Assembly (NCBI RefSeq): GCF_900172275.1
Contig: NZ_FWFT01000001.1
Coordinates: 62,001 to 126,000, forward strand
Source: Pseudooctadecabacter jejudonensis
Lineage (GTDB): Bacteria > Pseudomonadota > Alphaproteobacteria > Rhodobacterales > Rhodobacteraceae
DNA length: 64,000 nucleotides
Direction of reading: 5' to 3'
Part shown: piece by piece, positions 24,994-52,489 of the stretch
Layout of the letters: the number at the start of each line of letters is the position of its first letter
Numbering within the stretch: position 1 is the first letter of the stretch
Position numbers and translations under genes: made by a program
Notes under the pieces: model-generated
What the model was told of the DNA's origin: nothing
The model's input: the letters and a program-made list of their open reading frames with translations, nothing else
The model's database searches: none

Positions 24994-25138
24994 TTTCGAA
25001 TTGGCTGCGCCAATCCGACCCATTTTTTATTTTCGAATTGGCTGCGCCAATCCGATCCGTTTTTATTTTCGAATTGGCTTTGCCAATCCGACCCGGGCCG
25101 CTGCGCGGCGGTTTTTTAGGTATTTTTGACCCAAAGAA
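24994..25138 (+). repeat. Dispersed hairpin element, copy A (three upstream hairpins)
   Basis: Three 28-nt units start at 24994, 25031 and 25067. Each reads TTTCGAATT, stem bases, AATCCGA, (C/T)CC, and folds as ATTGGC-TGC-GCCAAT (loop TTT in the third). T-rich spacers follow the first two. A GC hairpin CCGC-TGC-GCGG (25098-25108) and six T follow, then the shared tail GGTATTTTTGACCCAAAGAA at 25119-25138. The element lies between the convergent dctM and tpiA genes. Confidence 0.9.
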
Positions 25139-25140
25139 TT

Positions 25141-25278
25141 CAAGCCGTCTCGAAGCGGCCCCGATGTTGGGAGACTGGGGGCCGGTTAGGCGCAGAATGG
25201 TCGGAGACGCAAGCCGTCTCGAAGCGGCCCCGAAGTTGGGAGACTGGGGGCCGGTTCGGCGCAGATTGGTCGGAGACC
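25141..25278. repeat. 69-bp tandem repeat, two copies
   Basis: Two adjacent copies of a 69-bp unit starting CAAGCCGTCTCGAAGCGG (25141 and 25210) differ at only a few bases. Each unit has nested inverted sequences GTCTC/GAGAC and GGCCCC/GGGGCC, so each copy can fold. It directly follows repeat copy A and ends 18 bp before the tpiA stop codon. Confidence 0.93.
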
Positions 25279-25295
25279 GGCGCATCCGCGTAATT

Positions 25296-26027
25296 TCAGC
25301 TGTTTTCCAAGGCCGTGACGATGGGGGAGAAATCGGCGGCCTTGAGCGAAGCGCCACCCACCAGCGCGCCGTCGACGTTGTCCAGTGCGAAGATATCGGC
25401 GGCGTTGGAGGCTTTGACGGAGCCGCCGTAGAGGAGGCGCATTTGGGCGCCTTCGTCGCCGAAGCGGTCTGTCAGATAGGCGCGCAGGGCGGCGTGGACG
25501 TCTGCGATTTCTTGCGGCGTGGGGGTGAGGCCGGTGCCGATGGCCCAGACGGGTTCATAGGCGATGGTGGTGTTTTGGGCGGTGGCCGCATCGGGGATGG
25601 AGCCGTCCATCTGGGTGGTGAGGACATCGAGGGTGTCGCCCGCGCGGTACTGGGCCTCGGTCTCTCCGATACACAGGATGACGTGGAGGTTTGCAGCCCA
25701 GCCTGCGGTGGTTTTGGCGGTGACGTCGGCGTCGGTTTCGCCGTGGTCGGTGCGCCGTTCTGAGTGGCCGGTGATGACATGCGTGGCGCCTGCGTCGGCC
25801 AGCATGGGGGCGGAGATGTCTCCGGTGTGGGCACCCGAGGGGGCCGGGTGGCAGTCTTCGCCGCCCACGCTGAGCCCGGTTGCCGCCATACGCGTGAGCA
25901 AGGTGGCGGGGCCGCAGATCACGACATCGACGGAGGCGGCATGGTGGTCATTTGCCAAAGCCTCAAGCTGCGGGATGTCCGCGCTTGTGCCATTCATTTT
26001 CCAGTTTCCTGCGGCCAGTTTGCGCAT
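25296..26027 (-). CDS. tpiA: Triosephosphate isomerase
   Basis: A 243-residue glycolytic enzyme interconverting dihydroxyacetone phosphate and glyceraldehyde 3-phosphate. Catalytic residues are in view: Lys in GNWKMNG, His in VITGHSERR and Glu in AYEPVWAIGTG; the phosphate loop LLYGGSVKASNA is intact. The start MRKLAAGNWKMNG at 26027 matches the family, so the in-frame ATG at 26063 is not used. It is divergent from an oxygenase gene 64 bp away. Confidence 0.96.
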   Translation of the reverse strand: MRKLAAGNWKMNGTSADIPQLEALANDHHAASVDVVICGPATLLTRMAATGLSVGGEDCHPAPSGAHTGDISAPMLADAGATHVITGHSERRTDHGETDADVTAKTTAGWAANLHVILCIGETEAQYRAGDTLDVLTTQMDGSIPDAATAQNTTIAYEPVWAIGTGLTPTPQEIADVHAALRAYLTDRFGDEGAQMRLLYGGSVKASNAADIFALDNVDGALVGGASLKAADFSPIVTALENS

Positions 26028-26091
26028 CTCACTCTCCCATTCTGTGTAGGTGTGATGTAGCAAGCGCGCGAGACAGACGAAAGGGCGGGTT

Positions 26092-26988
26092 ATGATCCCA
26101 CGGATTGATGCGGAAAAACTGTTGGCGGGGGATGCGGGCGTTTTGGCCGAGGTGGCAGTGGCGGCCCGTGAGATCGGGTTTATGACCCTTTATAACAGCC
26201 CGATCCCCGCGTCGGAGATTGCAGAGGTTTTTGCCGCTTATGGTGCGTTTTTTGCCCTGCCTGCGTCCCAAAAGGAGGCGGTGAATATGGCGCGTACAGG
26301 GTCCAACCGCGGGTGGGGCGCGCCCGGGTCCGAACAGGTCGATCCGGACGCCAACCCCGATTACAAGCAGGTGTTTGATTGCGGGTTTGAGGTTGAGGGG
26401 TCAGATTTGGCCGCTTATGCGCCCAATCTTTGGCCTGATGCGCCGGACGGGTTTCAGACGATCATTGAGAATTATTATGCCCGCGCGCTGGCCTTTTCTG
26501 GCGATGTTCTGGCGGCGATTGCCCAGGCGATCGGGGAGGATCCCAGCTATTTTCGGGATCAGTTTGATGCGCCCATGGCGCTTTTGAGGGGCAATTATTA
26601 TCCCACGCGGCCTGCGTGGGCGGGGGAGAAGGATTTCGGGATTGCCACGCACACCGACTACGGCTGTCTGACGTTGCTGGCCATGGACGGCACGCCGGGG
26701 CTGGAGGTGCGCAAGCGTGGGGGCGGGTGGATCCCTGTGTCGGCGCCCGTGGGCGAGTTCGTGATCAACTTTGGCGAGATGCTGGAGATTTGGACCGACC
26801 GACGTGTCATTGCCACGCCGCACCGTGTTGTGGGCGGGCGCGACGAACGGATGTCGATTCCGTTGTTTTACAACCCAAATGCGGACACAAACGTGGCTCC
26901 CATGGGGTCGGGTCAGGTGGTGCGGGCGGTGGATCATCTGCAGGCGCGGTTTGACGAAACCTATGTCCATTTGCAGGACAAAGGCTGA
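26092..26988 (+). CDS. Isopenicillin N synthase-like 2-oxoglutarate/Fe(II) oxygenase
   Basis: A 298-residue non-haem iron oxygenase. The N-terminal DIOX_N-like region runs from PRIDAEKLLAGD, and the jelly-roll core carries the iron ligands HTDYGCLTLL (His and Asp) and ATPHRVVGG (His), with Arg in ERMSIPLFYNP to bind the cosubstrate. Members hydroxylate or desaturate small molecules; the substrate here is unknown. It stands alone between divergent tpiA and a convergent TfoX-like gene. Confidence 0.9.
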   Translation: MIPRIDAEKLLAGDAGVLAEVAVAAREIGFMTLYNSPIPASEIAEVFAAYGAFFALPASQKEAVNMARTGSNRGWGAPGSEQVDPDANPDYKQVFDCGFEVEGSDLAAYAPNLWPDAPDGFQTIIENYYARALAFSGDVLAAIAQAIGEDPSYFRDQFDAPMALLRGNYYPTRPAWAGEKDFGIATHTDYGCLTLLAMDGTPGLEVRKRGGGWIPVSAPVGEFVINFGEMLEIWTDRRVIATPHRVVGGRDERMSIPLFYNPNADTNVAPMGSGQVVRAVDHLQARFDETYVHLQDKG

Positions 26989-27004
26989 CGTTTCAATGGC
27001 TTGC

Positions 27005-27328
27005 CTAGAGATGTTGAAGCGCGCGGCGGGCCAGATCCACGGCCTCGTCGGGGTCATCCATAGCGCTATCGGGCAGGTGCCAGTAGGGCATGTTCGTAGG
27101 GGAGCCGTCTTTGCGCAGGTAATGCCATTTTTCCAGCCCCATGGCGGTCAGCTCAGCGGCAAAAGGCCCAGCACCTTTGATCAGGATGCCGCCGTGGGGA
27201 TGGATGATCGCGAAAATGGTGCCTTGGTGATAGATGCACAGGCCACCCATCATTTTGCGCGTGCTGAGATCGCCAAGACCGTCAAAGAGTTCAAGGGCTT
27301 GGGCTGCGTCAGCGTCGCTGAGACTCAT
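27005..27328 (-). CDS. TfoX N-terminal domain protein
   Basis: A 107-residue protein with the TfoX N-domain pattern: GDLSTRKMMGGLCIYHQGTIFAI early and EKWHYLRKDG with MPYWHLPD late. In Haemophilus TfoX controls competence, but single-domain homologues in alphaproteobacteria have no established role. Its start overlaps the stop of the upstream Fe-S carrier gene by 4 bp, so the two are probably co-translated. Confidence 0.85.
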   Translation of the reverse strand: MSLSDADAAQALELFDGLGDLSTRKMMGGLCIYHQGTIFAIIHPHGGILIKGAGPFAAELTAMGLEKWHYLRKDGSPTNMPYWHLPDSAMDDPDEAVDLARRALQHL

Positions 27329-27690
27329 GGTTTTGGGGTCAGCGCATCGTCAAACTTGATGGATTCGCCGCAGCCGCAGGCTTCGGTGACGTTGGGGTTG
27401 CGGAACTTGAAACCGGCCTCCAACAGGCTGATTTCATAGTCAATTTCGGTGCCGAACAGGAACATTTGCGCCATGGGGGCGATCATCACGCGGGCACCGT
27501 CTTGTTCAACGACTTCGTCGAGCGGATCAACTTCGGTCACGTAGTCCATGGTGTATTCCATGCCCGCGCAGCCGCCCTTTTTGACGCCAATGCGCAAGCC
27601 CTGATGGCCGTCCTTTTCCATCAGTTTGGCGATTTGGCTTGCGGCCTTGTCCGTTATCGTGACCGCCTGTTTTCCAGGTATTCCAAACAT
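27325..27690 (-). CDS. A-type iron-sulfur carrier (HesB/IscA/SufA family)
   Basis: A 121-residue protein with the three conserved Cys of A-type carriers: one in GVKKGGCAGMEY and two in EACGCGESI. These bind or pass on Fe-S clusters. The position directly after a SufT-like gene and the C-terminal extension ALTPKP are noted. The surrounding suf operon is not in the window, so whether this is SufA or ErpA cannot be settled here. Confidence 0.9.
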   Translation of the reverse strand: MFGIPGKQAVTITDKAASQIAKLMEKDGHQGLRIGVKKGGCAGMEYTMDYVTEVDPLDEVVEQDGARVMIAPMAQMFLFGTEIDYEISLLEAGFKFRNPNVTEACGCGESIKFDDALTPKP

Positions 27691-27717
27691 TTAGAGGCCT
27701 TTCTTAAACCACTGCGC

Positions 27718-28104
27718 CTACATGAAGCCCAGTTCAAGCCGCGCTTCGTCCGACATCATGTCCATGCCCCATTGGGGTTCCCACACCAGATCAACATCCA
27801 CGGTTTTGACACCGGCCAGCGGTTCAACCGCATCGGCCACCCAGCCCGGCATTTCACCAGCCACGGGACATCCCGGGGCGGTGAGGGACATTTTGATGTG
27901 CACCTCATTTTCGCCGTTGATGTCGATCGTGTAAATCAGGCCGAGGTCGTAGATGTTCACCGGAATTTCGGGATCATAAACGGTGCGGCAAGCCTCAACG
28001 ATATTGTCATAGAGGGGATGATCGGTGGTTGAGGGCTGAATAAGCGGCGTGCCCTCCATCGGGGTGGTGTGCGCGCTGTCTTGCGGGGGTGTTTGGTCGG
28101 TCAT
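27718..28104 (-). CDS. sufT: SufT-like Fe-S assembly protein (MIP18/DUF59 domain)
   Basis: A 128-residue protein with a variable N-terminal 45 residues and a DUF59 domain: VYDPEIPVNIYDLGLIYTIDI, then MSLTAPGCPVAGEMPGW with the conserved Cys, then VDLVWEPQWGMDMMSDEARLELG. Such proteins help mature Fe-S proteins. The start MTDQTPPQDS at 28104 is preferred; an upstream in-frame start at 28188 lacks support. The A-type carrier gene follows at 27 bp. Confidence 0.9.
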   Translation of the reverse strand: MTDQTPPQDSAHTTPMEGTPLIQPSTTDHPLYDNIVEACRTVYDPEIPVNIYDLGLIYTIDINGENEVHIKMSLTAPGCPVAGEMPGWVADAVEPLAGVKTVDVDLVWEPQWGMDMMSDEARLELGFM

Positions 28105-28218
28105 CTCAGAGCCTATCCTAATTCCTGACTGAACATATAGGGATTGGCCCCAGCGGCGTAAAGGGCAGCGCGCCCGTGCCGCCCGCATGTCGGGGCCCGT
28201 CGGCGGAGCAGCACGGGT

Positions 28219-29616
28219 CTAGAGTTTGCGTTTGGACTTGAGGGGGACAGGTTTGACGGAGGCTTCGATATGATCGAACACAAGTCCGGCCAAGTCCTTT
28301 TTGGTCGCTTTTTCAATACCTTCAAAGCCGGGGGATGAGTTAACCTCAAGGATTTTCGGCCCGTCTTTGGAGCGCAGCAGATCCACGCCGGCCAGCGAAA
28401 GATTGAACGCCTTGGCGGCTTTCACGGCAGTGCGCCGTTCTTCGGGGGTGATTTTCACGGCCTCAGCGGTGCCGCCGCGGTGCAGGTTTGATCGGAAATC
28501 ATCGCCTGCCGATTTGCGGCGCATGGCGGCCACCACTTTGCCTGCGACGACGAAACAACGGATGTCCTCACCGGCGGCTTCCTTGACGAAATCCTGCACC
28601 AGAAAATTGGCCTTCAGCCCCCGAAAGGCGTCGATCACGGATTCGGCGGCCTTTTTCGTTTCCGCCAGAACGACCCCCTTGCCTTGGGTTGATTCCAGCA
28701 GTTTGACGATGAGGGGGGCGGTGCCGACCAGCCCCATCAGATTGGATGTGTCCTTTGGCGAGGCGGCGAAGGCCGTCGTAGGCATGCCGATCTTTTGGGC
28801 GGCCAGCACCTGATGGGCGTGCAGTTTGTCACGGCTGGCGGTGATCCCGTCCGAGCCGTTGACGCAATAGGTGCCAAGGGTTTCGAATTGTCGCAGGACA
28901 GCGCAGCCATAAGCCGTGACCGTGGCCCCAATGCGCGGCACGACCGCGTCATAGCGGGGCAGGCGTTTGCCATCGTAGTGAATTTCGGGGGCGAGGGCAT
29001 TGATGGCCATGTAACAGCGGGTGGTGTCGATGACTTCAACCACATGGCCGCGTTCTTCGCCTGCATTCACAATGCGCCGGGTGGAATAATTGTTGGGCTC
29101 ACGGCTGAGGACGGCGACGCGCAGGGCGCGTTTGGGTGTCACCGCCTTGATCTTTTTGGCGGAATAGACGTCGTAGCTGCGCTCGGGCCGAAGGAATTTG
29201 TCGTTGGGCTGGACGATGACGTCATCGCGCAGGGCCTGGCGGCCCAGCAACATCCGCGAGGCCATGCCGCCCCGGTCGGTGAGCGTCACTTCGATGGGCC
29301 AGCTGTGCCCGTCGCCTGCATCCAGCAAGGTTTCGATGACATAGCGCATCTCGGCCTCACCATTGGAGGATGTGACCTCCCGCCGGTCAACGACCGTGGC
29401 AGAACACGGGATTGTCAGGTCATCGCGTCCGGGCACCGGATGCACGGCAAAACGCACCTTAGGGCGGGCCGCGGGGCCGAAGGTTTCGATGTCGAAGGCA
29501 TGCAGGGCGGATGTCCGCGCGCCCGTGTCCACCTTGGCCTTGATGGTCGGCAGGCCCAGTTGCGGAAGGCCCAGCCATTCTTCCCATCCAAGGCGAATTG
29601 CTGTGTCATCGATCAT
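28219..29616 (-). CDS. rimK: RimB-RimK fusion: retropepsin-like zinc-protease domain plus ATP-grasp glutamate ligase
   Basis: A 465-residue two-domain protein. Residues 1 to about 150 match the RimB family, with [16 protein letters not shown] (Asp-Thr-Gly of an aspartic-protease-like fold) and [18 protein letters not shown]. Residues about 165 to 455 match RimK, with [18 protein letters not shown], the ATP-grasp segment [35 protein letters not shown], and the metal site [14 protein letters not shown]. RimK adds glutamates to ribosomal protein S6. Fusing the two domains suggests that modification and its processing are physically coupled. It is divergent from tgt with 61 bp between. Confidence 0.9.
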
Positions 29617-29677
29617 CGGTGGCCCTTTCCATTTGTGTCATTCTGTCCCAGAAGCGGGGTGAGACATGAGGATATCC

Positions 29678-30808
29678 ATGAAGAACACGTTTTCGTTCGA
29701 GTTGCAAAAGACAGATGGCGCGGCCCGCACAGGCGTGATCCGCACCCCGCGGGGTGAGGTCCGCACACCTGCGTTTATGCCCGTGGGCACCGCCGCGACC
29801 GTCAAGGCGATGATGCCGGAAAGCGTGGCTGAGACCGGTGCGGATATCTTGCTCGGCAACACCTATCATTTGATGTTGCGCCCCACCGCAGAACGGATTG
29901 ACCGTTTGGGCGGGCTGCATCGGTTTATGAATTGGGATCGGCCCATTTTGACCGATTCAGGTGGGTTTCAGGTGATGTCCCTGTCGGGCCTGCGCAAGCT
30001 GACCGAGGACGGCGTGACGTTCAAATCCCACATCGATGGGTCGAAACATGTCCTGTCCCCTGAGACGTCGATGGAGATTCAGCGCCTTTTGGGCTCCGAC
30101 ATCGTGATGTGCTTTGATGAATGCCCGGCGCTGCCTGCGGACAAGTCGCGGATCGCAGACAGCATGCGCCTGTCCATGCGGTGGGCAGACCGCAGCCGCG
30201 CGGCCTTTGGGGACAGGCCGGGACATGCGCTGTTCGGGATCCAGCAAGGCGGGCTTGAAGAAGACCTGCGCGCAGAAAGCGCAGAAGCCTTGCAACAGAT
30301 CGGGTTTGAGGGCTACGCGGTGGGCGGCCTTGCTGTGGGGGAAGGACAGGAGGCCATGTTTGGCTGTCTTGATTTCGCACCCGGCCAGTTGCCCGTGGAC
30401 AAGCCGCGCTACCTGATGGGCGTGGGCAAACCGGATGACATTGTGGGGGCCGTCAAACGTGGCATCGACATGATGGATTGTGTGTTGCCGTCGCGTTCAG
30501 GGCGCACGGGGCAGGTGTTCACCCGCCACGGCGTGGTCAACATCAAGAATGCGCGCCACGCCGATGACCCGCGCCCCTTGGATGACACCTGCCGCTGCCC
30601 GGCCTGCCGCAACTATTCGCGCGCCTATTTGCATCATGTGTTCCGCAGTCAGGAAATGATCTCCGGCATGCTGCTGACATGGCATAATCTGACTTATTTT
30701 CAGGACATTATGCAGGGCATGCGGGCGGCCATCGCCGCAGGCACGTTTGACGCGTGGGAGGCTGATTTTCACGCAGGTCGCGCAGCAGGGGATATTGAGC
30801 CGCTATGA
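29678..30808 (+). CDS. tgt: Queuine tRNA-ribosyltransferase
   Basis: A 376-residue tRNA-guanine transglycosylase that exchanges guanine 34 for preQ1 in GUN anticodons. Catalytic Asp is in [12 protein letters not shown], the second in [17 protein letters not shown], and the zinc site is [18 protein letters not shown]. The ATG at 29678 has GAGG 6 nt upstream; an ATG at 29666 would add four residues. The gene overlaps the next by 4 bp. Confidence 0.96.
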
Positions 30809-31347
30809 TCCGCGCCGCGATCTTATGTGTTGGCCTCAGCACTGCTGCCTCGGCCGAAAGCCTGTGTGGTGTCACTGACCCGCAGGTCATTCTGGGACAT
30901 CTGTCGGGGGAGTGGTCCTTGACGGGTGCCCTCTCGGTTGAGCTTGAAACCCTGTCGGTGACGCAACCCGTCACAGGCACAGCCTCGGCGCAGGGCGCCG
31001 ACCTGACCCTTCAGTTTCCCATGGAGACGGAGGCGCACACCATGAACCTGCGCCCCGCGCCAGACCGCCGCGATGTCGATTGGGTCGACGATATCCTGAC
31101 AACAGTCGAACAGGACGGGATCGCGGATGATCTGTCGCTGACACCCTGCGGCCCCGAAAGCCTGATCCAATTCATCGGATCCGCTTCGACCGAGGACGGC
31201 CGCAGCCAAATCACCACCATTCTGCCCTATTTTTCCGATGCCATGCTCATGGTGCAAACCGGCGAATGGGCGGGCGAGTGGGGGCTGGCCTTTCTGACCG
31301 GGGCGGCCCTGATGCGGCCATCCAGCGCAGACATCCAAAACCCCTAA
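30805..31347 (+). CDS. Predicted secreted protein of unknown function
   Basis: A 180-residue product with a short signal peptide, [17 protein letters not shown], and two Cys in the mature part (SLCGVTDP and LTPCGPES) that could pair. The mature part alternates short strands, for instance [16 protein letters not shown] and [17 protein letters not shown], suggesting a beta-rich lipocalin-like or barrel fold. I do not recognise the family. Translation is coupled to tgt by an ATGA overlap. Confidence 0.7.
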
Positions 31348-31400
31348 AGGCGCCACATCGCAGTCTGTCACGCGGGGGCCAAACAGGCTCCTTGTGTCGT

Positions 31401-31473
31401 TTCTTTGGGTCAAAAATACCTGAAATCTGCGCCGCGCAGCGGCGCGGATCGGATTGGCGCAGCCAATTCGAAA
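31401..31473 (-). repeat. Dispersed hairpin element, copy B
   Basis: Read on the minus strand: the 28-nt unit with ATTGGC-TGC-GCCAAT (31446-31473), then GC hairpin GCGCCGC-TGC-GCGGCGC (31429-31445), then the tail GGTATTTTTGACCCAAAGAA (31401-31420). It lies between the secreted-protein gene and lon. The remainder of the 344-bp gap holds the lon promoter and no gene. Confidence 0.9.
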
Positions 31474-31590
31474 CAAATTCATCCGCAATCTTATGGGTTT
31501 TTCACGGCTTATCCCCACAATTGTCGCCATTGCTGCCTTGCAGCGGGGCGGCCACACGGGCACTCTGTCTCCGACCTGGGCAGGATCCAG

Positions 31591-31618
31591 GTTGAAAGCG
31601 GGCGCAAGACCCCCATCT
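31591..31618 (+). promoter_or_regulatory. Sigma-32 (RpoH)-type heat-shock promoter of lon
   Basis: GTTGAAA (31591-31597), a 13-nt spacer and CCCCATCT (31611-31618) match the known sigma-32 consensus CTTGAAA and CCCCATNT nearly perfectly. It sits 73 bp upstream of the lon ATG. Confidence 0.85.
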
Positions 31619-31691
31619 TTATAATCCAAGCCGGAGACGCGGGCGTTGCCTCAAAGAGGGACGGCGCGTTCTGCCAACAAAGGAACAGAGC

Positions 31692-34103
31692 ATGCAAGAA
31701 CCATTGAGTTCATCCTACCCCGTCCTGCCGCTGCGCGACATCGTGGTCTTCCCCCACATGGTCGTGCCGCTGTTCGTGGGACGCGAAAAGTCTGTCAGCG
31801 CCCTCGAAGAGGTGATGCAGGACGACAAGCAAATTCTTCTCAGCAGTCAGATTGACCCCGGTGAGGATGATCCTGAGACAACAGGCATCTACAAGGCCGG
31901 CGTGCTGGCCAATGTGCTGCAGCTGCTGAAATTGCCCGACGGCACGGTCAAAGTGCTGGTCGAAGGCATTGCGCGTGTGCGCATCACAGAATATCTTGAG
32001 AATGACAAATTCTTTGAAGCCCGCGCCGAATACCTCACCGAAATGCCCGGTGACATGTCCGCGATTGAGGCTTTGACGCGCACCGTGGCGCAGGAGTTTG
32101 AACGCTACGCCAAGGTCAAAAAGAACATCCCCGAAGAGGCATTGTCCGCCGTGTCCGAGGCCACCGAAGCCGCGACGCTGGCCGATCTGGTCGCAGGTCA
32201 TCTGGGCATCGAGGTCAACCAACGACAGGAGTTGTTGGAAACGCTCAGCGTGTCCGAACGTCTCGAAAAGGTCTACGGGCTGATGCAGGGCGAATTGTCG
32301 GTGCTGAAGGTCGAGAAAAAGATCAAGACCCGCGTCAAAACCCAGATGGAGCGCACCCAGCGCGAGTACTATCTGAATGAGCAGATGAAGGCCATTCAGA
32401 AGGAATTGGGCGACGGCGAAGACGGCGAAGGCGAAGTGGCCGAACTTGAGGGCAAAATCGCTGAGGCGAAGCTGTCCAAAGAAGCCCGCGAAAAGGCCGA
32501 AGGTGAGCTGAAAAAGCTGAAAAACATGTCGCCCATGTCGGCCGAAGCCACGGTCGTGCGCAACTATCTGGATTGGATGTTGTCCATTCCGTGGGGCACA
32601 AAATCTCGCGTGAAAAAGGACCTTGGCCGCGCTGAAGCGATCCTCGATGCGGATCACTATGGTCTTGATAAGGTCAAGGAACGGATCGTTGAATATCTGG
32701 CGGTGCAGCAACGCTCCAAAAAGCTCAAAGGGCCGATCATGTGCCTTGTGGGCCCTCCGGGTGTGGGTAAGACCTCGCTTGGGAAATCTGTAGCCAAGGC
32801 CACGGGGCGTGAGTTTATCCGCATCTCCCTTGGGGGTGTGCGCGACGAATCTGAGATTCGCGGCCACCGCCGGACCTACATCGGGTCCATGCCCGGGAAG
32901 ATCATTCAGGCGCTGAAAAAGGCCAAGACGACGAATCCTCTGATCTTGTTGGATGAGATCGACAAGATGGGGCAGGATTTCCGCGGAGATCCGGCGTCTG
33001 CGATGTTGGAAGTGTTGGATCCGGAACAGAACGGCACCTTCGTCGACCACTACCTTGAGGTTGAATACGATCTGTCGAATGTGATGTTCCTGACCACCTC
33101 GAACTCCTACAACATGCCGGGGCCGCTCTTGGACCGGATGGAGATCATCCCGCTGTCGGGCTACACCGAGGACGAAAAGCGCGAAATTGCCAAGCAGCAT
33201 CTGCTGGGCAAGGTGATGAAGAACCACGGTCTCAAAGACAGTGAATTCACGCTTGAGGACAGCGCATTGACGGCCATCATCCGGCACTACACCCGCGAGG
33301 CGGGCGTGCGGAACCTGGAACGTGAGATTGCCAAGGTGGCGCGCAAGGCGGTGACCAAGATCGTCAAGAAAGAGGTCGAAGAGGTCGTCGTCACCGGCGA
33401 CAACATCGATGACTTCCTTGGCGTGAAAAAGCACCGTTTCGGGCTGGCCGAGGAAACCGATCAGGTCGGCGTTGTGACCGGTCTTGCCTATACGTCTGTG
33501 GGGGGTGAGTTGCTCAACATCGAAGCCCTCAGTCTGCCGGGCAAGGGCCGGATGAAGACGACCGGTAAGCTGGGTGATGTGATGAAGGAATCCATTGATG
33601 CCGCTTCGTCCTACGTTCGCTCTATCAGCCCGCAAATCGGGGTGAAGCCGCCGAAGTTCGACAAGCTGGACATCCACGTGCACGTGCCCGACGGGGCCAC
33701 GCCCAAGGATGGCCCGTCTGCCGGTCTGGCCATGACCACGGCGATTGTGTCCGTGCTGACGGGGATCCCCGTGCGAAAGGACATCGCCATGACGGGTGAG
33801 GTGTCCTTGCGCGGCAACGCGATGCCGATCGGGGGGCTGAAGGAAAAACTGCTGGCCGCCCTGCGTGGCGGGATCAGAACGGTTCTTATCCCTGAGGAAA
33901 ACGTCAAGGATTTGGCCGATATCCCCGACAACGTGAAAGAGGGGCTTGAGATCATCGCGGTCAAACATGCCTCTGAGGTGTTGGAGCACGCACTTGTCGC
34001 GGCCCCCGAAGCGATCGAGTGGGACCAGGAGGCCGAAGAGGCCGCCGCTGCTGAGGCCGCGTTGCGCGGGCAGGGCGACGGGGCGGGTCTGACAGCCCAC
34101 TAG
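31692..34103 (+). CDS. lon: ATP-dependent protease Lon
   Basis: An 803-residue cytoplasmic protease that removes misfolded and regulatory proteins. The N-terminal substrate domain begins [19 protein letters not shown]. The AAA+ domain has Walker [14 protein letters not shown] and Walker [13 protein letters not shown]. The proteolytic domain has the Ser in [12 protein letters not shown] and the Lys in [14 protein letters not shown]. Length and domain order are standard for LonA. A heat-shock-type promoter lies upstream and an intrinsic terminator downstream. Confidence 0.98.
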
Positions 34104-36802: not shown

Positions 36803-36987
36803 CTGTCGCTTGGACCTGAGAGTGTAGCCGCAGGGGTTTGCCTGCAACGCCTCCTTCGGTGGGCAGGGGCTGCCTGCCGCTCTCCAGATTGTGGCTCCGG
36901 TCCGCGGTCCTTTTGCCTGAGAGTTTCCGGGTCGTTGCTCCTTCGGCGCGCACCGCTGCAACAGGGGCAGGCTGCGTCTCTCCCGCG
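36803..36987 (-). promoter_or_regulatory. Tandem glycine riboswitch (two aptamers)
   Basis: On the minus strand two glycine aptamers follow each other. Aptamer 1 (about 36987-36905) runs from GGAGAGACGC through GCCGAAGGAGCAA to CTCTCAGGCAAAAGGAC. Aptamer 2 (about 36886-36803) runs from GGAGAGCGGC through CACCGAAGGAGGCG to CTCTCAGGTCCAAGCGACAG. These are the conserved cores of the gcvT class. Downstream, a hairpin GGACGG-GCCA-CCGTCC (about 36780-36795) lies before the ribosome site of the DadA-like gene, probably part of the expression platform. Confidence 0.95.
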
Positions 36988-37122
36988 GGGGAGGATATGG
37001 GACAGCTATGAGCGTTTCCGATCGGAAACTCAACTGAATTCTGTTACACATTTTCATGAGGTCCGTTCACACAACGCGCGGTCACATCTGGTGCAGGCCC
37101 GCGCGCTGGGGTAGGGCGGAGC

Positions 37123-37761: not shown

Positions 37762-37771
37762 CCGCGCCATC

Positions 37772-39903: not shown

Positions 39904-40228
39904 TGCAATTGCCTTGGACTGATTTAGAGGTCATGTCTTCATATTGGGATCTTGGGTGGAAATCCACCTCCGAAACTTCTGTCTGAGGTGGGCGTCTTGA
40001 GCCGCCCTGCACAGTCCACATGCAGGTCTTTATGAAATGCGAGGTCGCCCAGAGCATTTTGGCCGGTAACGGCGGAGAGTGTGCCGAACTGTTAATGTTT
40101 CGAAAGGCACTGACGGCCTTGGATATCCCGAGTTTTCTTGGGTTTTCTTGCGCCGCGACCCTCCGGAGGTGTCGCAACGCATTTCAGTGCTTTGTTTTCA
40201 TCTGACCCGAAAAACTCCAGCCGGAGGC
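39904..40228. other. Gene-free stretch between GSCFA and DEAD-box genes
   Basis: About 325 bp with no gene I can support. Two open frames (61 codons on the plus strand, 93 on the minus) show no recognisable protein features. It would contain the GSCFA promoter. Confidence 0.5.
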
Positions 40229-43524: not shown

Positions 43525-43557
43525 CCGGTGTTGCGGGTGTTGTGACGTCGGAATTCA

Positions 43558-43577
43558 GGTATTTTTGACCCAAAGAA
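43558..43577 (+). repeat. Dispersed element tail, copy C (no hairpin)
   Basis: An exact 20-nt copy of GGTATTTTTGACCCAAAGAA between the convergent pirin and polysaccharide deacetylase genes. No strong hairpin precedes it. Confidence 0.92.
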
Positions 43578-44920: not shown

Positions 44921-44926
44921 CGCGTG

Positions 44927-46243
44927 TTAGCGCAGGTGATCGAAGGCGCGTCGCAGGGTCATGTCTTGCCCCGCCATAAGGCTGTCTGTGTCCACGGGAA
45001 CCGCGATGTCGGGCAAAAGGCCCACGCCTTCGGGGGATGTCCCGTCCAGTTGGCGGTAGGTTTGATGCGACAGGCCCAGCGACCAGCCGTTGGGCAAGAC
45101 CACTTCAAGCACGTCAGAGAGCGCACCGGAGGTCGGGGTGCCCATGGTTGTGACCTGCGGCAGGTCCTGCATCGTCATGGTGAAGATTTCCGCCGCCGAT
45201 CCGGTGAGTTCCGAGGTCAGGATCAGCACAGGTTGATCCAGTGGCGTGTTGTCGAAGGGGGCAAGGGCTGCGGTGAAGGGCGCGGTTTGGCCCGCGCCGC
45301 TGCGGGTCGATTTGGTAAAGACAGGCAGGGCGGTCGCGGTGAAGTGGCTGGCGATGCCGAAGGCCACGGTGTCGGAGCCGCCCGGATTGTAGCGCAGATC
45401 GAGGATGATTGCGCGGGCATCGGCAAAGGCGTCCGCGACCTCTTCGAACGCCAAGGCCATGGCGGGGCCGCTGGTGGTGGCGAAGGGGGTGTTGATGTCC
45501 ATGTAGGGAATGATCGCGTAGCCGATGCCGTTGGACAGTAGAGTGTATTCGATGGCGGTTTGATCCACGCGGGTCAGATCCGTGCCGATGGTTTGGCGGG
45601 CGATGTCCGTGAGGGCGCTGCGGGTGAAGGTGGGGGAGGCCGTGAGCCAGCCTTCGCGCGTTTTGGGTGAGCTGTAGCCCCGCGGCGTGGCAAGGCCCAC
45701 GTGGCCATCCTCAAGGCCTGCAAGGGTTGTCATGAGCAGTTCTTGGAGCGCGGCGTCGCCCATTGTGGCGACAGGCGGTGGGGCGAGGGTGCGGCGGGCG
45801 TCCCAATCCACGCCGTAGAGGTCAAAGAAGGCATAGTGGTCGTTCATGGCGTGCCAGAGAGTGTCGAAGACCTCACGCGGGGTGGCGGTGTCGGGCTGGG
45901 CTGGGCCGCAGCCTTCGGGGAGGGCGTCGATACGGGTGAAGGCCCACGTGTCCAACATGCCGTCGGCTGCCAGAGTGAGGGTGTCGCCTTGGGCCGTGAG
46001 CACTGCGCCTTCGGCCCATTCGACGAGTTTGAGGTGGGCGGGGAAGGTGAGCTGTTCGACACAGCTTTGCGAGGTTTCGGAATACAGCGTGGCCGTGAAG
46101 GGGGTTAGGCGAAGGAGGGCCGCGTTTTCGGGGGAGCGCCAGACGCCGCGCTGGGTGCTGTCGGGCATATACCAGACCCAGGAGGCCACGAAGGCGATCA
46201 TGAGTACTGCAAGGGTGATCCAGAGCTGGCGCATCAGGCGCAT
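44927..46243 (-). CDS. S41 family peptidase, membrane-anchored
   Basis: A 438-residue protein with an N-terminal membrane anchor (RQLWITLAVLMIAFVASWVW). The protease domain carries DLRYNPGGSDTVAFGIA, the nucleophile region LTSELTGSAAEIFTMTM, and GTPTSGALSDVLEVVLPNG. The catalytic Lys expected in CtpA-type enzymes is not in that last motif, so it is closer to the Ser-His S41B group. Likely acts in the periplasm on envelope proteins or peptides; targets are unknown. Confidence 0.87.
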   Translation of the reverse strand: MRLMRQLWITLAVLMIAFVASWVWYMPDSTQRGVWRSPENAALLRLTPFTATLYSETSQSCVEQLTFPAHLKLVEWAEGAVLTAQGDTLTLAADGMLDTWAFTRIDALPEGCGPAQPDTATPREVFDTLWHAMNDHYAFFDLYGVDWDARRTLAPPPVATMGDAALQELLMTTLAGLEDGHVGLATPRGYSSPKTREGWLTASPTFTRSALTDIARQTIGTDLTRVDQTAIEYTLLSNGIGYAIIPYMDINTPFATTSGPAMALAFEEVADAFADARAIILDLRYNPGGSDTVAFGIASHFTATALPVFTKSTRSGAGQTAPFTAALAPFDNTPLDQPVLILTSELTGSAAEIFTMTMQDLPQVTTMGTPTSGALSDVLEVVLPNGWSLGLSHQTYRQLDGTSPEGVGLLPDIAVPVDTDSLMAGQDMTLRRAFDHLR

Positions 46244-46306
46244 GGGGGCCTCGTTTCGTGTTGTTTGATCTGCGGGGACGGCGCGACGACGCGGACCGCG
46301 GATTTA

Positions 46307-46326
46307 GGTATTTTTGACCCAAAGAA
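46307..46326 (+). repeat. Dispersed element tail, copy D
   Basis: An exact 20-nt copy of GGTATTTTTGACCCAAAGAA, 64 bp upstream of the S41 peptidase start and next to the 152-bp tandem array. Confidence 0.92.
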
Positions 46327-46361
46327 GCGGGGGGTGCGCCTGTTGGATCAGGGGGAGGGTT

Positions 46362-47018
46362 ACGACAGGGTGTCCAATAACCGCGTCAAGGAACGGATGC
46401 CTTTGTGGAGTTAGGGCCGGTCCGCTGTTGCGGCAAACGGTCCGGTGGACCGTTTGAGGCCCGAACGGGCGGCGCCCCCGTAGGCGGTCCATGTGCTGCG
46501 ATTGCGAGAGATCACGACAGGGCCTCCAGCACGCGGGCCCAGGAACGGATGCCTTTGTGGAGTTTGGGCCGGTCCGCTGTTGCGGCAAACGGTCCGGTGG
46601 ACCGTTTGAGGCCCGAACGGGCGGAGCCCCCGTAGGCGGTCCATGTGCTGCGATTGCGAGAGATCACGACAGGGCCTCCAGCACGCGGGCCCAGGAACGG
46701 ATGCCTTTGTGGAGTTTGGGCCGGTCCGCTGTTGCGGCAAACGGTCCGGTGGACCGTTTGAGGCCCGAACGGGCGGAGCCCCCGTAGGCGGTCCATGTGC
46801 TGCGATTGCGAGAGATCACGACAGGGCCTCCAGCACGCGGGCCCAGGAACGGATGCCTTTGTGGAGTTTGGGCCGGTCCGCTGTTGCGGCAAACGGTCCG
46901 GTGGACCGTTTGAGGCCCGAACGGGCGGAGCCCCCGTAGGCGGTCCATGTGCTGCGGTTGCGAGAGATCACGACAGGGCCTCCAGCACGCGGGCCCAGGA
47001 ACGGATGCCTTTGTGGAA
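46362..47018. repeat. 152-bp tandem array, four full copies plus the gene-borne copy
   Basis: The sequence GAACGGATGCCTTTGTGG recurs at 46391, 46543, 46695, 46847 and 46999, exactly 152 bp apart. Copies two to four are nearly identical; the leftmost is more diverged. The rightmost occurrence is inside the 3' end of the M20 dipeptidase gene, so each repeat carries a copy of the last 15 codons of that gene (KGIRSWARVLEALS and stop). Each unit also has a perfect 10-bp hairpin, CAAACGGTCC-GGT-GGACCGTTTG (46434, 46586, 46738, 46890). Open frames through the array are not convincing genes. Confidence 0.96.
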
Positions 47019-48356
47019 CGCCTCCACATCGTATTTTTCGTTGGGCGAGTGGATGCGGTCGTCCTCAGACGCAAAGCCGATCAGCATGGCGTCCATGTCG
47101 AGCACCGTTTTGAAGTGGCCCGCGATGGGGATGGAGCCGCCCATGCCGACAAACACGGCCTCGCGGTTCCATTCGCCTGTCAGGGCTTGGCGGGCGGCCT
47201 CGAATTCCGGCCGGTCGGTGTTCATCACCGAAGCCGGCGCACCTTCGAGGTCGTTGTCCCAGGTAACGCGCGTGTCGGGGCGCAACTGAGCCTCAACATG
47301 GGCGCGCAGTTTGTCGCGGATGTCGTCGGGGTCCATGTCGCCCACCAGTCGGCAGGTGATTTTGCAGTGGGCCTCTGCTGGAATCACGGTTTTGGAGCCC
47401 GCGCCCTGATAGCCGCCCCAGAGGCCGTTGATTTCAAGCGTGGGGCGCGACCATTGCTGTTCGAGGATGGAATAGCCTGTCTCACCGGCGGGGGTCGTGA
47501 GGCCTGCGTTGTCCATATAATCCTTGGCGTCAAAGCCGCAGGTGTCCCATTGGGCTTTCAGATTGTCGCCGATCTCGATCACGTCATCGTAGAAGCCTGC
47601 AATCGTCACGCGGCCTTCGTCATCGTGAAACGAGGCGATGATGCGGCTGATTTCCTTGAGGGGGTTCACGGCGGGGCCGCCGTAGTGGCCTGAGTGCAGA
47701 TCCATCGCGGGGCCGTGCAGGGTGAATTCGTCCTTGAGCATCCCGCGCAGCTGGCTGGCAATCGACGGCACGCCGGGGGCGACCATGCCGGTGTCGCAGA
47801 TGAGGGCAAGGTCGGCTTTCAACTCGTCGGCGTTCTCTTGCATGAAGGGCACGAGGGAGGGGGAGCCGGTTTCTTCTTCGCCCTCAAACAGGAAGGTGAT
47901 GCGGCAGGGCAGGGTGCCATGCACGGCCTTCCACGCGCGGCAGGCCTCCATGAAGGTCATCAGCTGGCCTTTGTCATCGGAGGTGCCGCGGCCGCGGATG
48001 ACTTTCTTGGTGCTGCCGTCCGGGGTGGTGCGGTCTTCGATGAAGGGGTCAAACGGGTCGTGGTCCCACAAGGCGATCGGATCGACGGGTTGCACATCGT
48101 AGTGGCCGTAAAACAGCAGATGCGGCCCCGTGTCGCCCACATGGCCGACCACCATGGGGTGCATTGGTGTGGGGCGTTTGGAGGCGTCCACGCCCAGGGA
48201 TTTGAGATCCTCGACCAGCCAATCGGCGGCTTTGTCGACCTCGGCCTTATAAGCGGGATCGGTGGAGACCGATTGCAGCCGCAAGAGGCCCATGAGCCGG
48301 TCCAGTGCGGCGTCAAGATCGGTGTCAATCTGGGTGAGGACGGCGTCGAGGGACAT
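46968..48356 (-). CDS. M20 family dipeptidase
   Basis: A 462-residue metallopeptidase. Metal and catalytic residues are visible in LLFYGHYDVQPVDP (His and Asp), RGTSDDKGQLMTF, FEGEEETGSPSLVPF (Glu-Glu) and LICDTGM. The dimerisation domain lies in the middle (residues about 200-350). It cleaves dipeptides or similar small peptides in the cytoplasm. GGAGA precedes the ATG. The last codons lie inside the repeat array, and the gene keeps an intact stop at the array's first unit. Confidence 0.93.
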   Translation of the reverse strand: MSLDAVLTQIDTDLDAALDRLMGLLRLQSVSTDPAYKAEVDKAADWLVEDLKSLGVDASKRPTPMHPMVVGHVGDTGPHLLFYGHYDVQPVDPIALWDHDPFDPFIEDRTTPDGSTKKVIRGRGTSDDKGQLMTFMEACRAWKAVHGTLPCRITFLFEGEEETGSPSLVPFMQENADELKADLALICDTGMVAPGVPSIASQLRGMLKDEFTLHGPAMDLHSGHYGGPAVNPLKEISRIIASFHDDEGRVTIAGFYDDVIEIGDNLKAQWDTCGFDAKDYMDNAGLTTPAGETGYSILEQQWSRPTLEINGLWGGYQGAGSKTVIPAEAHCKITCRLVGDMDPDDIRDKLRAHVEAQLRPDTRVTWDNDLEGAPASVMNTDRPEFEAARQALTGEWNREAVFVGMGGSIPIAGHFKTVLDMDAMLIGFASEDDRIHSPNEKYDVEAFHKGIRSWARVLEALS

Positions 48357-48425: not shown

Positions 48426-48439
48426 CTGATCTGGATCAA
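48426..48439. promoter_or_regulatory. FnrL/Fnr-like box upstream of hemA
   Basis: CTGATCTGGATCAA differs at one base from the Fnr consensus TTGAT-N4-ATCAA. It lies in the 235-bp region between the divergent dipeptidase and hemA genes, 152 bp before the hemA start. Confidence 0.65.
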
Positions 48440-48591
48440 AGTTGCCGATATGCGTCGCGGATAGGCTGCGACAGAGGGTAACAGGCGGAGTTTAGAGACA
48501 TTCCAAGTGTTGCCTGATCAAAACGGGGACTATATGTGCCTATGAAACCTCTGCTTTCGTGGTGAAAGCCCCAATATATGAGGACAGACGC

Positions 48592-49815: not shown

Positions 49816-49924
49816 TTTCTCTGCATGTGCAAAACAATTCGTGATGTGCTAAGGATCTGTTAAGGGATCGACCTATTAACGAATCGGGTCGGCCCTTTTG
49901 GGGCAGTGACGGAAAAGGGTACGG

Positions 49925-51148
49925 ATGATCCGCAGGGGATTCAGACGCGCAAAGCACGAAGAGATCGTCGAGCCGACCGGCTTTGACGCTTTCGAATTGC
50001 GTCTGGGTGATCTGATGCGGGGGGAACGCGCCACCTTGGGCAAAAGCCTGTTGGATGTGCAGCGGGAACTGAAGATCAAAGCAGCCTATATTGCCGCCAT
50101 CGAAAATTCCGACCCCACGGCGTTTGACACGCCCGGCTTTATCGCAGGCTACGTGCGGTCCTATGCGCGCTACCTGAACATGGATCCCGATTGGGCGTTT
50201 GATACGTTCTGCACCGAAAGCGGGTTCGCGACGGCCCACGGGATGTCCGAACAAGCCAGCGGCGCGAAACCCGTCAAGTCGGCACCTGCACCGTTTGAAA
50301 AAGATATCTTTGCGACACCGGCCACGCCTTTCGTGCCCGCCAATGACACGATGTTCGCCAGTGTTGAACCCCGCGCCGTGGGCTCCCTCATGGTGCTTTT
50401 GGCGCTGATCGGCGGGCTGGGCTATGGCGGCTGGACGGTTCTGCAAGAGGTCCAGAAGGTGCAACTGGCGCCCGTCGAAAACACACCGACCGTTATCGCG
50501 GATATTGACCCGCTGGCGGGCGGCGGCCTTGGGGCTGCGACCGCGGGGGTTGATGTGGTGGCCGGGTTTGATGCGCCGACGACCGAAGCTCTCGATCGTT
50601 TGTATCGCCCGCAGGCCCTTGATGCGCCGGTGTTGGTGCCCCGTGATGGTCCGATTGCAACGCTTGATCCCCGTCAGGGTGGTGTTTTGGCGCCAACCGC
50701 GCAAGAACGGCCCGGCCTGTTGGCTGAGGCCGCGGTGGATGGCGCCCCGTTGGTTGAGCCGACGTCGGTTCAAGTGACCGAACCGGCCCGCCCTGGTGTT
50801 CAACTGGTCGCGGTGCGCGATGCATGGGTGCGCGTGCGGTCTGCGGACGGGTCTGTGATCTACGAGGCGGTGATGACAGCCGGCGACACCTTTGATGTGC
50901 CGCAAACCGAAGAACCCGCCACCTTGCGGATTGGTGAGTCTGGTGCGGTTTATTTCGCAGTAAACGGCGACCACTACGGCCCTGTCGGCCCGCGTGGTCA
51001 GGTGACATCCAATGTTGCCCTGTCTGTCGAAAACCTGACGCAGGTCTATGCGCAGGCGGATCCGGCCGCCGACAGCGATTTCTGCGGATTGGCCCAACAG
51101 GGCGAAATTCAGGTTGCCGGGATCTCGTCCGAGTTTGTGTGCCCCTAA
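49925..51148 (+). CDS. RodZ-like protein: N-terminal HTH, membrane helix, DUF4115 domain
   Basis: A 407-residue protein. The N-terminal HTH_25-type helix-turn-helix (DLMRGERATLGKSLLDVQ through AAIENSD and GYVRSYARYLNMDPD) precedes a membrane segment at about residues 138-158 (GSLMVLLALIGGLGYGGWTV). A Pro/Ala-rich linker then leads to a periplasmic DUF4115 domain (ARPGVQLVAVRDAWVRVRS to the end). RodZ links MreB to the envelope and shapes rods. Position directly before ispG is a common bacterial arrangement. Confidence 0.85.
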   Translation: MIRRGFRRAKHEEIVEPTGFDAFELRLGDLMRGERATLGKSLLDVQRELKIKAAYIAAIENSDPTAFDTPGFIAGYVRSYARYLNMDPDWAFDTFCTESGFATAHGMSEQASGAKPVKSAPAPFEKDIFATPATPFVPANDTMFASVEPRAVGSLMVLLALIGGLGYGGWTVLQEVQKVQLAPVENTPTVIADIDPLAGGGLGAATAGVDVVAGFDAPTTEALDRLYRPQALDAPVLVPRDGPIATLDPRQGGVLAPTAQERPGLLAEAAVDGAPLVEPTSVQVTEPARPGVQLVAVRDAWVRVRSADGSVIYEAVMTAGDTFDVPQTEEPATLRIGESGAVYFAVNGDHYGPVGPRGQVTSNVALSVENLTQVYAQADPAADSDFCGLAQQGEIQVAGISSEFVCP

Positions 51149-51242
51149 TTCTGTAAATTTGACCGCGCAATCTGTCGCAGACCGTTGCCCCGCGCCTTTG
51201 CTGCGACTAGGTTGGCTGTAACGCAAACCTGACAGGTGGCCC

Positions 51243-52364
51243 ATGTCCCTCAATCATATTCGTCCGTGGCGCAACATTTATCGCCGTGAAAGCCGCCAGA
51301 TCATGGTGGGCAATGTGCCCGTGGGCGGCGGCGCACCGATCACGGTTCAGACGATGACGAACACGCTGACACCGGACGTCAAAGCGACGATTGCACAGGT
51401 GCAGGCCGCGGCGGAGGCTGGGGCTGATATCGTCCGGATCTCGGTGCCGGATGAAGACTCGTCACGCGCGTTGAAGGAAATCTGTGCGGAAAGCCCAGTG
51501 CCGATCGTGGCCGATATCCATTTCCACTATAAACGAGGGATCGAGGCCGCCGAGGCGGGCGCCGCATGTCTACGCATCAACCCTGGCAACATCGGGTCCG
51601 AGGACCGCGTGAAAGAGGTGATCAAAGCCGCCCGCGACCACAATTGCTCCATCCGGATTGGGGTGAACGCCGGATCGTTGGAAAAGCACCTTCTTGATAA
51701 ATACGGAGAGCCCACGCCCGATGCGATGGTGGAAAGCGGGCTCGATCATATCAAGATTTTGCAGGACAATGATTTCCACGAGTTCAAGATCAGCTGTAAG
51801 GCGTCCGATGTGTTTATGGCCGCCGCCGCCTATCAACAGTTGGCGGAGCAAACGGACGCGCCCATTCACCTGGGCATCACAGAGGCTGGTGGTTTGACGT
51901 CAGGCACGATCAAATCAGCGATCGGGCTTGGTAATTTGCTGTGGATGGGGATTGGTGACACCATCCGTGTGAGCCTGTCCGCGGATCCGGTGGAAGAGGT
52001 CAAAGTCGGTTACGAGATCTTGAAGTCCCTCGGATTGCGCCACCGCGGCGTCAATATCATCTCATGCCCCAGCTGCGCGCGTCAGGGATTTGACGTGATT
52101 AAGACGGTCGAAAAGTTGGAAAAACGTCTGGAACACATCAAGACCCCGATGAGCCTGTCGATCATTGGCTGCGTTGTGAATGGTCCGGGTGAGGCACTGA
52201 TGACCGATGTGGGCTTCACCGGCGGGGGCAACGGATCCGGTATGGTCTATTTGGCAGGCAAACAGAGCCATAAGCTGAACAACGATCAGATGGTGGATCA
52301 CATCGTGGAACAGGTTGAAGCGAAAGCGGCTGAACTTGACGCTGCAGCGGAAGCTGCGGAGTAG
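51243..52364 (+). CDS. ispG: 4-hydroxy-3-methylbut-2-enyl diphosphate synthase
   Basis: A 373-residue [4Fe-4S] enzyme in the MEP isoprenoid pathway. The TIM-barrel region starts [19 protein letters not shown], and the cluster ligands are in [14 protein letters not shown] and [10 protein letters not shown]. It is 94 bp downstream of the rodZ-like gene and ends just before repeat copy E. Confidence 0.97.
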
Positions 52365-52367
52365 GGA

Positions 52368-52489
52368 TTTCGAATTTACTTCGTAAATCCGACCCAAGCG
52401 CGCTGTGCGCGCAAATATATAGTGAGGCTACTAAACAGCGGTGCGCACTTCAGCCGACGTAGAACATTAGGTATTTTTGACCCAAAGAA
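52368..52489 (+). repeat. Dispersed hairpin element, copy E
   Basis: Starts 4 bp after the ispG stop. The 28-nt unit (52368-52395) has the same flanks as copies A and B but the stem is ATTTAC-TTC-GTAAAT. It is followed by a GC hairpin GCGCGC-TGT-GCGCGC (52398-52412), a longer spacer and the exact tail at 52470-52489. Confidence 0.9.

What the first reader, a model, noticed from the sequence alone, without database searches (positions are those of the whole stretch)
24994..52395. Compensatory base changes in the hairpin unit of the element
The 28-nt units share TTTCGAATT...AATCCGA(C/T)CC. In copies A and B the stem continues GGC-TGC-GCC; in copy E it is TAC-TTC-GTA. Three stem positions changed together on both sides while the flanks stayed. 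Loops also vary (TGC, TTT, TTC). This is covariation, the standard sign that a fold is under selection. The second, GC-rich hairpin varies the same way (CCGC/GCGG, GCGCCGC/GCGGCGC, GCGCGC/GCGCGC).
Basis: seen in the sequence. Interest (0 to 1): 0.85.

Follow-up and report, generated by a model that had tools for sequence, protein, structure and literature searches.

The report
Self-pairing repeats beside a species-specific signal
Small hairpin sequences that often sit just after genes in a bacterium related to Pseudooctadecabacter keep their ability to fold while their letters change, and they are part of a larger element, for which I found no description, whose short signal sequence differs between species yet often stays at the same places.

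Summary
A pattern blind to the inner stem finds 64 sites in this genome, a congener and named relatives; 63 keep at least four of five free pairs, 62 all five. On 41 distinct units there are 43 both-side changes, no one-sided change and one broken pair in the inner stem. At three orthologous loci the inner stem differs by paired changes only. The second, GC-rich hairpin behaves likewise (48 of 61). The step to 'selection on an RNA fold' is weaker: one-sided intermediates are missing, and template switching can make such changes at once. The hairpin is the 5' part of a composite intergenic element that often starts within 10 nt of a stop codon (35 of 63) and ends in a 21-bp motif, AGGTATTTnnGACCCAAAGAA: 95 copies, 74 exact, control 0. 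A congener has its own version (44 copies, control 0); 14 of 14 congener sites placed on one contig coincide with elements here. I read it as a DNA-level 3'-boundary element, like E. coli BIME/RIP but not shown to be a member; function inferred.

The parts
24994..25021 (+). hairpin unit 1 (TTTCGAATTGGC-TGC-GCCAATCCGACCC)
25031..25058 (+). hairpin unit 2, tandem copy
25067..25094 (+). hairpin unit 3 (loop TTT)
25097..25109 (+). second, GC-rich hairpin, followed by a T run; scans as terminator-like
25118..25138 (+). motif M1, exact 21-mer
   Evidence: C5:87118-87138
31446..31473 (-). hairpin unit (GGC-TGC-GCC); not found in the orthologous gap of G145
31429..31445 (-). second hairpin GCGCCGC-TGC-GCGGCGC
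31401..31421 (-). motif M1, exact
52368..52395 (+). hairpin unit with changed stem (TAC-TTC-GTA), 3 nt after the stop codon of ispG; ortholog in congener G145 has GGC-TTT-GCC
52398..52412 (+). second hairpin GCGCGC-TGT-GCGCGC
52469..52489 (+). motif M1, exact
52637..52657 (-). motif M1, exact, facing the previous one
43557..43577 (+). motif M1 without the hairpin unit, between convergent genes
46306..46326 (+). motif M1 without the hairpin unit
61966..61986 (+). motif M1 variant (2 mismatches), after two other hairpins
40197..40217 (-). motif M2 (GAGTTTTTCGGGTCAGATGAA), second motif class of this genome

Best explanation
The hairpin unit is the 5' module of a composite intergenic element: unit hairpin, then usually a GC-rich hairpin, then a 21-22 bp motif. 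SHOWN: the modules, their order, their site at gene 3' ends, paired changes in both hairpins, near-invariance of the motif within this genome, a different version of it in a congener, and shared sites. INFERRED: the motif is the binding site of an unidentified sequence-specific DNA-binding protein, and the element works at DNA level as a boundary at gene ends, above all between converging genes (a roadblock or topology site, as I recall being proposed for E. coli BIME/RIP). The palindromes beside it need only be palindromes; replication template switching rewrites both arms at once, and selection removes copies that lose pairing. The protein's specificity shifts between species and the sites follow.
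For: Covariation: 62 of 64 pairing-blind sites have all five free pairs; 40 of 41 distinct units fully paired against a shuffled mean of 8.2, maximum 18 in 2000 shuffles; 43 double, 0 single changes. Second hairpin: perfect stem of 6 or more in 48 of 61, shuffled mean 1.1, 41 different sequences. Order: 52 of 60 units have a TATTT/GAGTT-type motif within 200 nt 3' on the same strand, 2 of 60 on the 5' side. Motif: 95 copies, 74 exact, control 0; 92 of 95 within one mismatch outside two central bases, while flanks are unrelated between most copies. Site: 98 of 103 M1-M3 copies on contig C5 are intergenic; they occupy 40 of 105 convergent, 44 of 368 co-directional and 10 of 153 divergent gaps. 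Little RNA orientation: in co-directional gaps 27 motifs sense, 19 antisense; terminator-like hairpins before the motif are no commoner than at other gene ends (8 of 60 vs 49 of 428). Species versions at fixed sites: listed rows read GACCC here, nearly all GAACC in G145 and G296, nearly all GAGCC in G298; 14 of 14 congener sites placeable on C5 carry M1 (9), M2 (3) or M3 (2) here.
Against: No protein was found or tested; Tus (PF05472) is absent. Units start within 10 nt of a same-strand stop codon in 35 of 63 against 1 of 63 in the mirror test (within 140 nt: 57 against 38), and on C5 lie 3' of a same-strand gene in 14 of 16, which an RNA role would also predict. Elements turn over: of 20 elements here in syntenic gaps, 17 lack the congener's main motif and 14 show no motif I recognise, some with a shrunken gap. 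Motif orientation follows the inferred leading strand in 66 of 98 (p = 8e-4; 26 of 42 in convergent gaps, p = 0.16), which this model does not explain. Uneven density (51 M1 on 1.04 Mb C5, 11 at up to 3 mismatches on 0.83 Mb C6) is unexplained. Eight of 19 genus genomes have none or only 1-7 matches to the relaxed motif.
Confidence: 0.42

Rival explanations
1. RNA-level 3'-end element: the hairpins are transcribed with the upstream gene and act as terminators or as guards against 3' exonucleases; covariation is ordinary RNA selection.
For: Unit 0-10 nt after a same-strand stop codon in 35 of 63; 14 of 16 on C5 downstream of a same-strand gene; one window copy scans as terminator-like; pairing kept at orthologous 3' ends.
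Against: No one-sided (G-U) state among 164 variable cells of the unit, although hairpins upstream of the motifs as a whole have 37 G-U of 955 cells; the gene-sense strand carries the A.C mismatch and folds worse in 41 of 41; three-base loops dominate (67 of 105) but are few in terminator-like hairpins elsewhere (5 of 32); terminator-like hairpins are not enriched; motifs are 27 sense and 19 antisense in co-directional gaps; at the 24.9 kb locus a separate hairpin with a T run precedes the element in both species (read by eye).
Confidence: 0.25
2. A selfish REP-like repeat moved by a transposase on single-stranded DNA, with no host function.
For: Intergenic hairpins with a recurrent mismatch, orientation bias to the inferred leading strand, gain or loss between congeners with near-empty sites, complement-strand GNA loops in 44 of 63.
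Against: No Y1 transposase (PF01797) in the genome; the REP tetranucleotide is at chance (3 and 1 of 63); motif copies share the 21-mer and little of their flanks, and copies with 2-3 mismatches are few; sites are shared between species.
Confidence: 0.17
3. The paired changes come from replication template switching alone; the hairpins have no selected function.
For: Zero one-sided changes and 30 of 43 double changes of the G-C to T-A type; such events are described (PMC8794818); 41 different second-hairpin sequences among 48.
Against: The A.C mismatch of the asymmetric units is kept in nearly all of those seen on C5 (15 of 16, one A-T form); hairpins persist at orthologous loci and in a fixed order before the motif.
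Confidence: 0.1
4. The 21-mer is a species watermark for DNA uptake, like the Neisseria DUS dialects.
For: Genome-specific versions, 3'-end position, shared sites.
Against: About 95 copies of M1 in 3.4 Mb, against thousands of DUS per genome (PMC3630211 abstract); no uptake data; the hairpin modules are unexplained.
Confidence: 0.06

Closest known systems
E. coli PU/BIME and RIP elements (palindromic units combined with a protein-binding site)
   Same: Intergenic mosaics at gene 3' ends; imperfect palindromes with a conserved mismatch and variable stem and loop; combined with a linear motif (IHF site in RIP). The E. coli side is recalled.
   Different: Different sequences; the motif has species versions; here several hairpin families precede one motif; no gyrase or IHF binding known.
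REP/REPIN repeats mobilised by RAYT (TnpA_REP)
   Same: Many-copy intergenic hairpins.
   Different: No Y1 transposase found in the genome, GTAG/GGAG/GTGG foot only at chance level.
Neisseriaceae DNA uptake sequence dialects
   Same: Short motif nearly invariant within a genome and different between related species.
   Different: Copy number far lower, flanking hairpins, no link to uptake.
Brucella Bru-RS and Rickettsia RPE palindromic repeats
   Same: Alphaproteobacterial intergenic palindromes (named in passages of PMC2267715).
   Different: Repeats of about 100 bp in that paper's table; not compared by sequence here.

Membership tests
REP/RAYT elements | cognate Y1 (TnpA_REP/RAYT) transposase in the genome | tested here: not met
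   PF01797: 0 matches in the own genome; 5 of 14 control genomes ring
REP/RAYT elements | GTAG/GGAG/GTGG 0-2 nt 5' of the hairpin (definition read in a passage of PMC6006769) | tested here: not met
   3 of 63 on one strand, 1 of 63 on the other, about 2 expected
REP/RAYT elements | many-copy intergenic imperfect palindrome | tested here: met
   29 strand-hits at 23 places on C5, all intergenic by my gene calls
BIME/RIP | mosaic of palindromic units with other motifs at gene 3' ends | tested here: met
   the E. coli side is recalled plus the search listing of PMC2817692
BIME/RIP | binds gyrase, IHF or Pol I | not testable with these tools
   needs a binding assay
structured RNA family (Rfam) | matches a covariance model | tested here: not met
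   window at gathering: four tRNAs and a glycine riboswitch only; six element loci at E up to 1: none
intrinsic terminator | stem followed at once by a T run | tested here: inconclusive
   the 25097-25109 hairpin yes (window 24800-32000 scanned); no enrichment overall, 8 of 60 vs 49 of 428
Tus-Ter replication fork trap | Tus protein | tested here: not met
   PF05472: 0 matches; E. coli control rings
DNA uptake sequence | uptake of DNA depends on the motif | not testable with these tools
   needs transformation assays

The most novel reading that the evidence does not exclude
This genus and its relatives carry an unnoticed set of about a hundred or more 21-22 bp protein-binding sites per genome at gene 3' boundaries, many with their own freely changing palindromes; the recognised sequence is rewritten across the whole genome between species, even within a genus, while many sites stay in place: a fast-evolving protein-site system not yet described.
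Probability: 0.33. Interest if true: 0.85.

Novelty: new variant of a known kind. Interest (0 to 1): 0.62.

Why it matters
If the reading holds, there is an undescribed DNA-binding (or boundary) system in a major order of alphaproteobacteria, with dozens of natural replicates per genome and a natural series of species versions, so the binding protein could be found by co-variation and a pull-down. It is also a clear case where strong covariation need not mean RNA selection, since one-sided intermediates are missing in the unit stem.

Tried and rejected
Rejected: (a) the TTTCGAATT copies at 28881 and 49990. (b) Rfam families. (c) RAYT-mobilised REP. (d) Tus-Ter: the motif resembles E. coli Ter as I recall it, but Tus is absent. 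(e) A coding repeat: its species versions do not keep a peptide (by eye, no call). (f) Strict sense-RNA orientation of the motif.

Failed or faulty steps and limits. The pair test used a wrong index and printed False throughout; one search replaces it. The neighbour count returned 0 of 0 through a slip; one search replaces it. Pattern GTATTT-N7-AGANGAA was no use for G145 (11 hits, 5 in the control). In one search two of the 13 listed pairs used the second unit of L262, which lies 42 nt after the stop; the first unit there, right after the stop, has stem TTGGC/GCCAA and G-C at columns 6/22, so I dropped those two pairs; one further pair is two tandem copies of one locus. One of the 64 sites is probably counted twice (overlapping contig ends L231/L240). 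In one search two of five measures are not extreme against shuffles: pairs with a both-side change (43 of 500 as high) and further pair types (13 of 500). Outer columns were fixed by the search pattern and carry no evidence. Rows dropped: 3 of 63 units at contig ends; 2 of 63 downstream stretches too short or with N; L289 of the congener loci, because its flanks hit two separate places; 15 of 30 fetched congener loci could not be placed on C5, and four of those match own loci held only because they carry M1 or the unit, so they were not counted; 14 of the 44 congener sites were not fetched. Placing the 14, the variant M2 at L293 and the GGCCTAGATGAA motif of three G145 gaps were read by eye. 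Gene calls are home-made (ORF plus codon scores). The replication direction is inferred from a GC-skew change near 400 kb of C5. The C5 scan demanded pairing and was not used as covariation evidence.

Literature: nine searches; six aimed at the motif or at such repeats, three at parallels. In the listings I saw no paper on this motif or element, but searches listed 15 of 167 and 20 of 172 papers, one search's hits match only 12-base fragments and were not opened, and the library lacks most subscription journals. PMC12306157 was searched for Rhodobacter, Roseobacter, Paracoccus and Octadecabacter: 0 occurrences. PMC8794818: abstract and start of introduction; PMC3630211: abstract; PMC2267715 and PMC6006769: passages; PMC2817692: listing only; other statements on E. 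coli elements and DNA loops are recalled.
Full report
What is in the window. Three stand in tandem at 24994-25094, between a TRAP transporter gene and a triose-phosphate isomerase gene, one on the minus strand at 31446-31473, one at 52368-52395 just after ispG. The stems are GGC/GCC four times and TAC/GTA once, which is two changed pairs, not three. Each single copy, and the tandem as a whole, is followed on its own strand by a GC-rich hairpin and then by AGGTATTTTTGACCCAAAGAA. The same 21-mer occurs in the window without the unit too (43557, 46306, 52637, and with two mismatches 61966).

Is the covariation real? I searched with a pattern that fixes the outer letters and leaves the inner five pairs and the loop free. 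It gives 64 sites in the DNA held: 16 on own contig C5, 7 elsewhere in the own genome, 6 in congener G145, 35 in named records, mostly of Lentibacter, Nioella, Marivita, Pseudooctadecabacter and Marinosulfonomonas (one site is probably counted twice). The named records came by a narrower pattern that also fixed a T-A pair and the closing C-G pair. Sixty-three sites keep at least four of the five free pairs and 62 all five; the one that fails is a Hyphomicrobium record, taken to be a chance match. There are 41 distinct units with ten fully complementary stem sequences. Dealing the 3' arms anew gives 8.2 fully paired units on average and 18 at most in 2000 shuffles; 40 are observed. The pair counter gives a covariation score of 0.287 against 0.062 for shuffles (0 of 500 as high) and 0.077 at most for slid registers; two coarser measures are reached by 43 and 13 of 500 shuffles. 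Related copies are not independent, so orthologs matter more. After ispG (window 52368) the stem is TTTAC/GTAAA here and TTGGC/GCCAA in G145 (upstream proteins 90% identical) and in the first unit of a Pseudooctadecabacter record. Two further loci (C5:499286 and C5:373987) show three and one changed pairs against Pseudooctadecabacter records. Of the 10 valid ortholog pairs, 7 have the same inner stem and 3 differ, none of them on one side only. Two more own/congener pairs read by eye agree (L292, L294).

What is odd about it. In the four variable pairs 43 cells changed on both sides, none on one side, one is broken; 30 of the 43 are G-C to T-A, which cannot pass through G-U. The pair at columns 6/22 is A.C in all 41, because the pattern fixes it. 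In units found without that demand it also reads G-C or A-T; on the complement strand all three are standard pairs (G.U, G-C, A-U), and the complement folds better in 41 of 41 with RNA and with DNA parameters. Loops are TNC on the plus strand, GNA on the complement, in 44 of 63. From memory, C-GNA-G is an unusually stable DNA loop; I take this as a hint, not a test. Template switching can rewrite both arms in one event (PMC8794818), so the covariation shows that pairing is kept but not by itself that an RNA fold is selected. Against too clean a picture: hairpins upstream of the motifs as a whole do contain G-U pairs (37 of 955 cells), about half the share at other gene ends (186 of 2597).

The element. 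Fifty-two of 60 units have a TATTT/GAGTT-type motif within 200 nt on the 3' side, 2 of 60 on the 5' side; the regular expression is broad, and the 5' side is the control. Between them lies a second perfect hairpin in 48 of 61, with 41 different sequences. Thirty-five of 63 units begin within 10 nt of the stop codon of an open frame of at least 80 codons on the same strand, the mirror test gives 1 of 63; within 140 nt it is 57 against 38, so long frames by themselves are common. The motif has 95 copies in the genome, 74 exact, reversed control 0. Its edges are sharp and its flanks unrelated between most copies. Fifty of 51 copies on C5 are intergenic; the other lies in a doubtful 35-residue call. 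Two further classes share the layout: M2, GAGTTTTTCnGGTCAGATGAA (35 on C5, 3 of them in called genes), and M3, GCATATTTnnGAAACAGCGAA (17, 1 in a called gene). Together they occupy 40 of 105 convergent, 44 of 368 co-directional and 10 of 153 divergent gaps.

Species versions. Congener G145 (69-84% DNA identity in the aligned stretches) has no M1 at up to one mismatch but 44 matches to GAATATTTnnGAACCAAAGAA at up to three mismatches, control 0. In the genus 18 of 19 genomes match a relaxed form; 11 have 25 or more matches, seven have 1-7, one none, and the control gives one match each in two of the poor ones. Rows are listed for few genomes: GACCC in the own genome, nearly all GAACC in G296 and G145, nearly all GAGCC in G298. 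In 295 family genomes six match M1 at one mismatch, among them G088 with 44 and G262 with 10 copies (listed rows: a GAACC form), while 20 of 100, the own genome included, match GAGTATTTTTGnnnnAGATGAAG at two mismatches, control 0 in every row. Of 30 fetched G145 sites, 14 could be placed on C5 by their flanking genes, and all 14 own gaps carry M1 (9), M2 (3) or M3 (2) there. Even in convergent gaps only 40 of 105 have an element, so 14 of 14 is not expected by chance. From the other side, 20 own elements lie in 148 syntenic gaps; three have the G145 motif (Fisher p = 0.002) and three more a GGCCTAGATGAA form of M2 read by eye; 14 have nothing I recognise, some in gaps shrunk to a few bases. 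The window's element at 31401-31473 is one of these. So sites are partly shared and partly gained or lost.

How it may work. The strict, linear, position-specific motif with a looser centre looks like a protein site, and its use in both directions of co-directional gaps (27 sense, 19 antisense) speaks for DNA rather than RNA. Terminator-like hairpins are no commoner before the motif than at other gene ends (8 of 60, 49 of 428). I therefore favour a DNA-level boundary element. The stop-codon adjacency of the unit keeps the RNA reading alive. A leading-strand bias (66 of 98; not significant in convergent gaps alone, 26 of 42) and uneven contig density remain unexplained.

Place among known things. 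It works like BIME/RIP mosaics of E. coli but is not shown to be one. It fails two defining REP/RAYT features, matches no Rfam family, and Tus is absent. The literature searches, with their limits, are told in Tried and rejected.

Noticed in passing
window 25141-25277: Two tandem 69-nt repeats (96% alike) directly 3' of the motif; related stretches follow the motif in other own copies (L075, L091, L108, L109).
   Followed up: no
window 46210-47117: Tandem array of 152-nt repeats beside a motif copy; in G145 the two flanking genes nearly touch there.
   Followed up: partly
contig C5 of the own genome: Other hairpin families around the motifs: AAAATTCCGGAATTTT, AAAATTATATAATTTT, GGGGGCGCTGCCCCC, GCCTCCGGCGG.
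   Followed up: partly
C5:198635 gap and its G145 counterpart: Two different motif forms face each other in both species; the pair layout is kept while the sequences differ.
   Followed up: no
own contigs C5, C6, C11: Motif M1 density differs about fourfold between contigs.
   Followed up: no
window 36895-36995: Glycine riboswitch on the minus strand.
   Followed up: no
G088 loci, most of L115-L126: Motif copies followed about 20 nt later by an inverted motif of another form (CTTCTCTTCGTCAAAAATACTCC).
   Followed up: no
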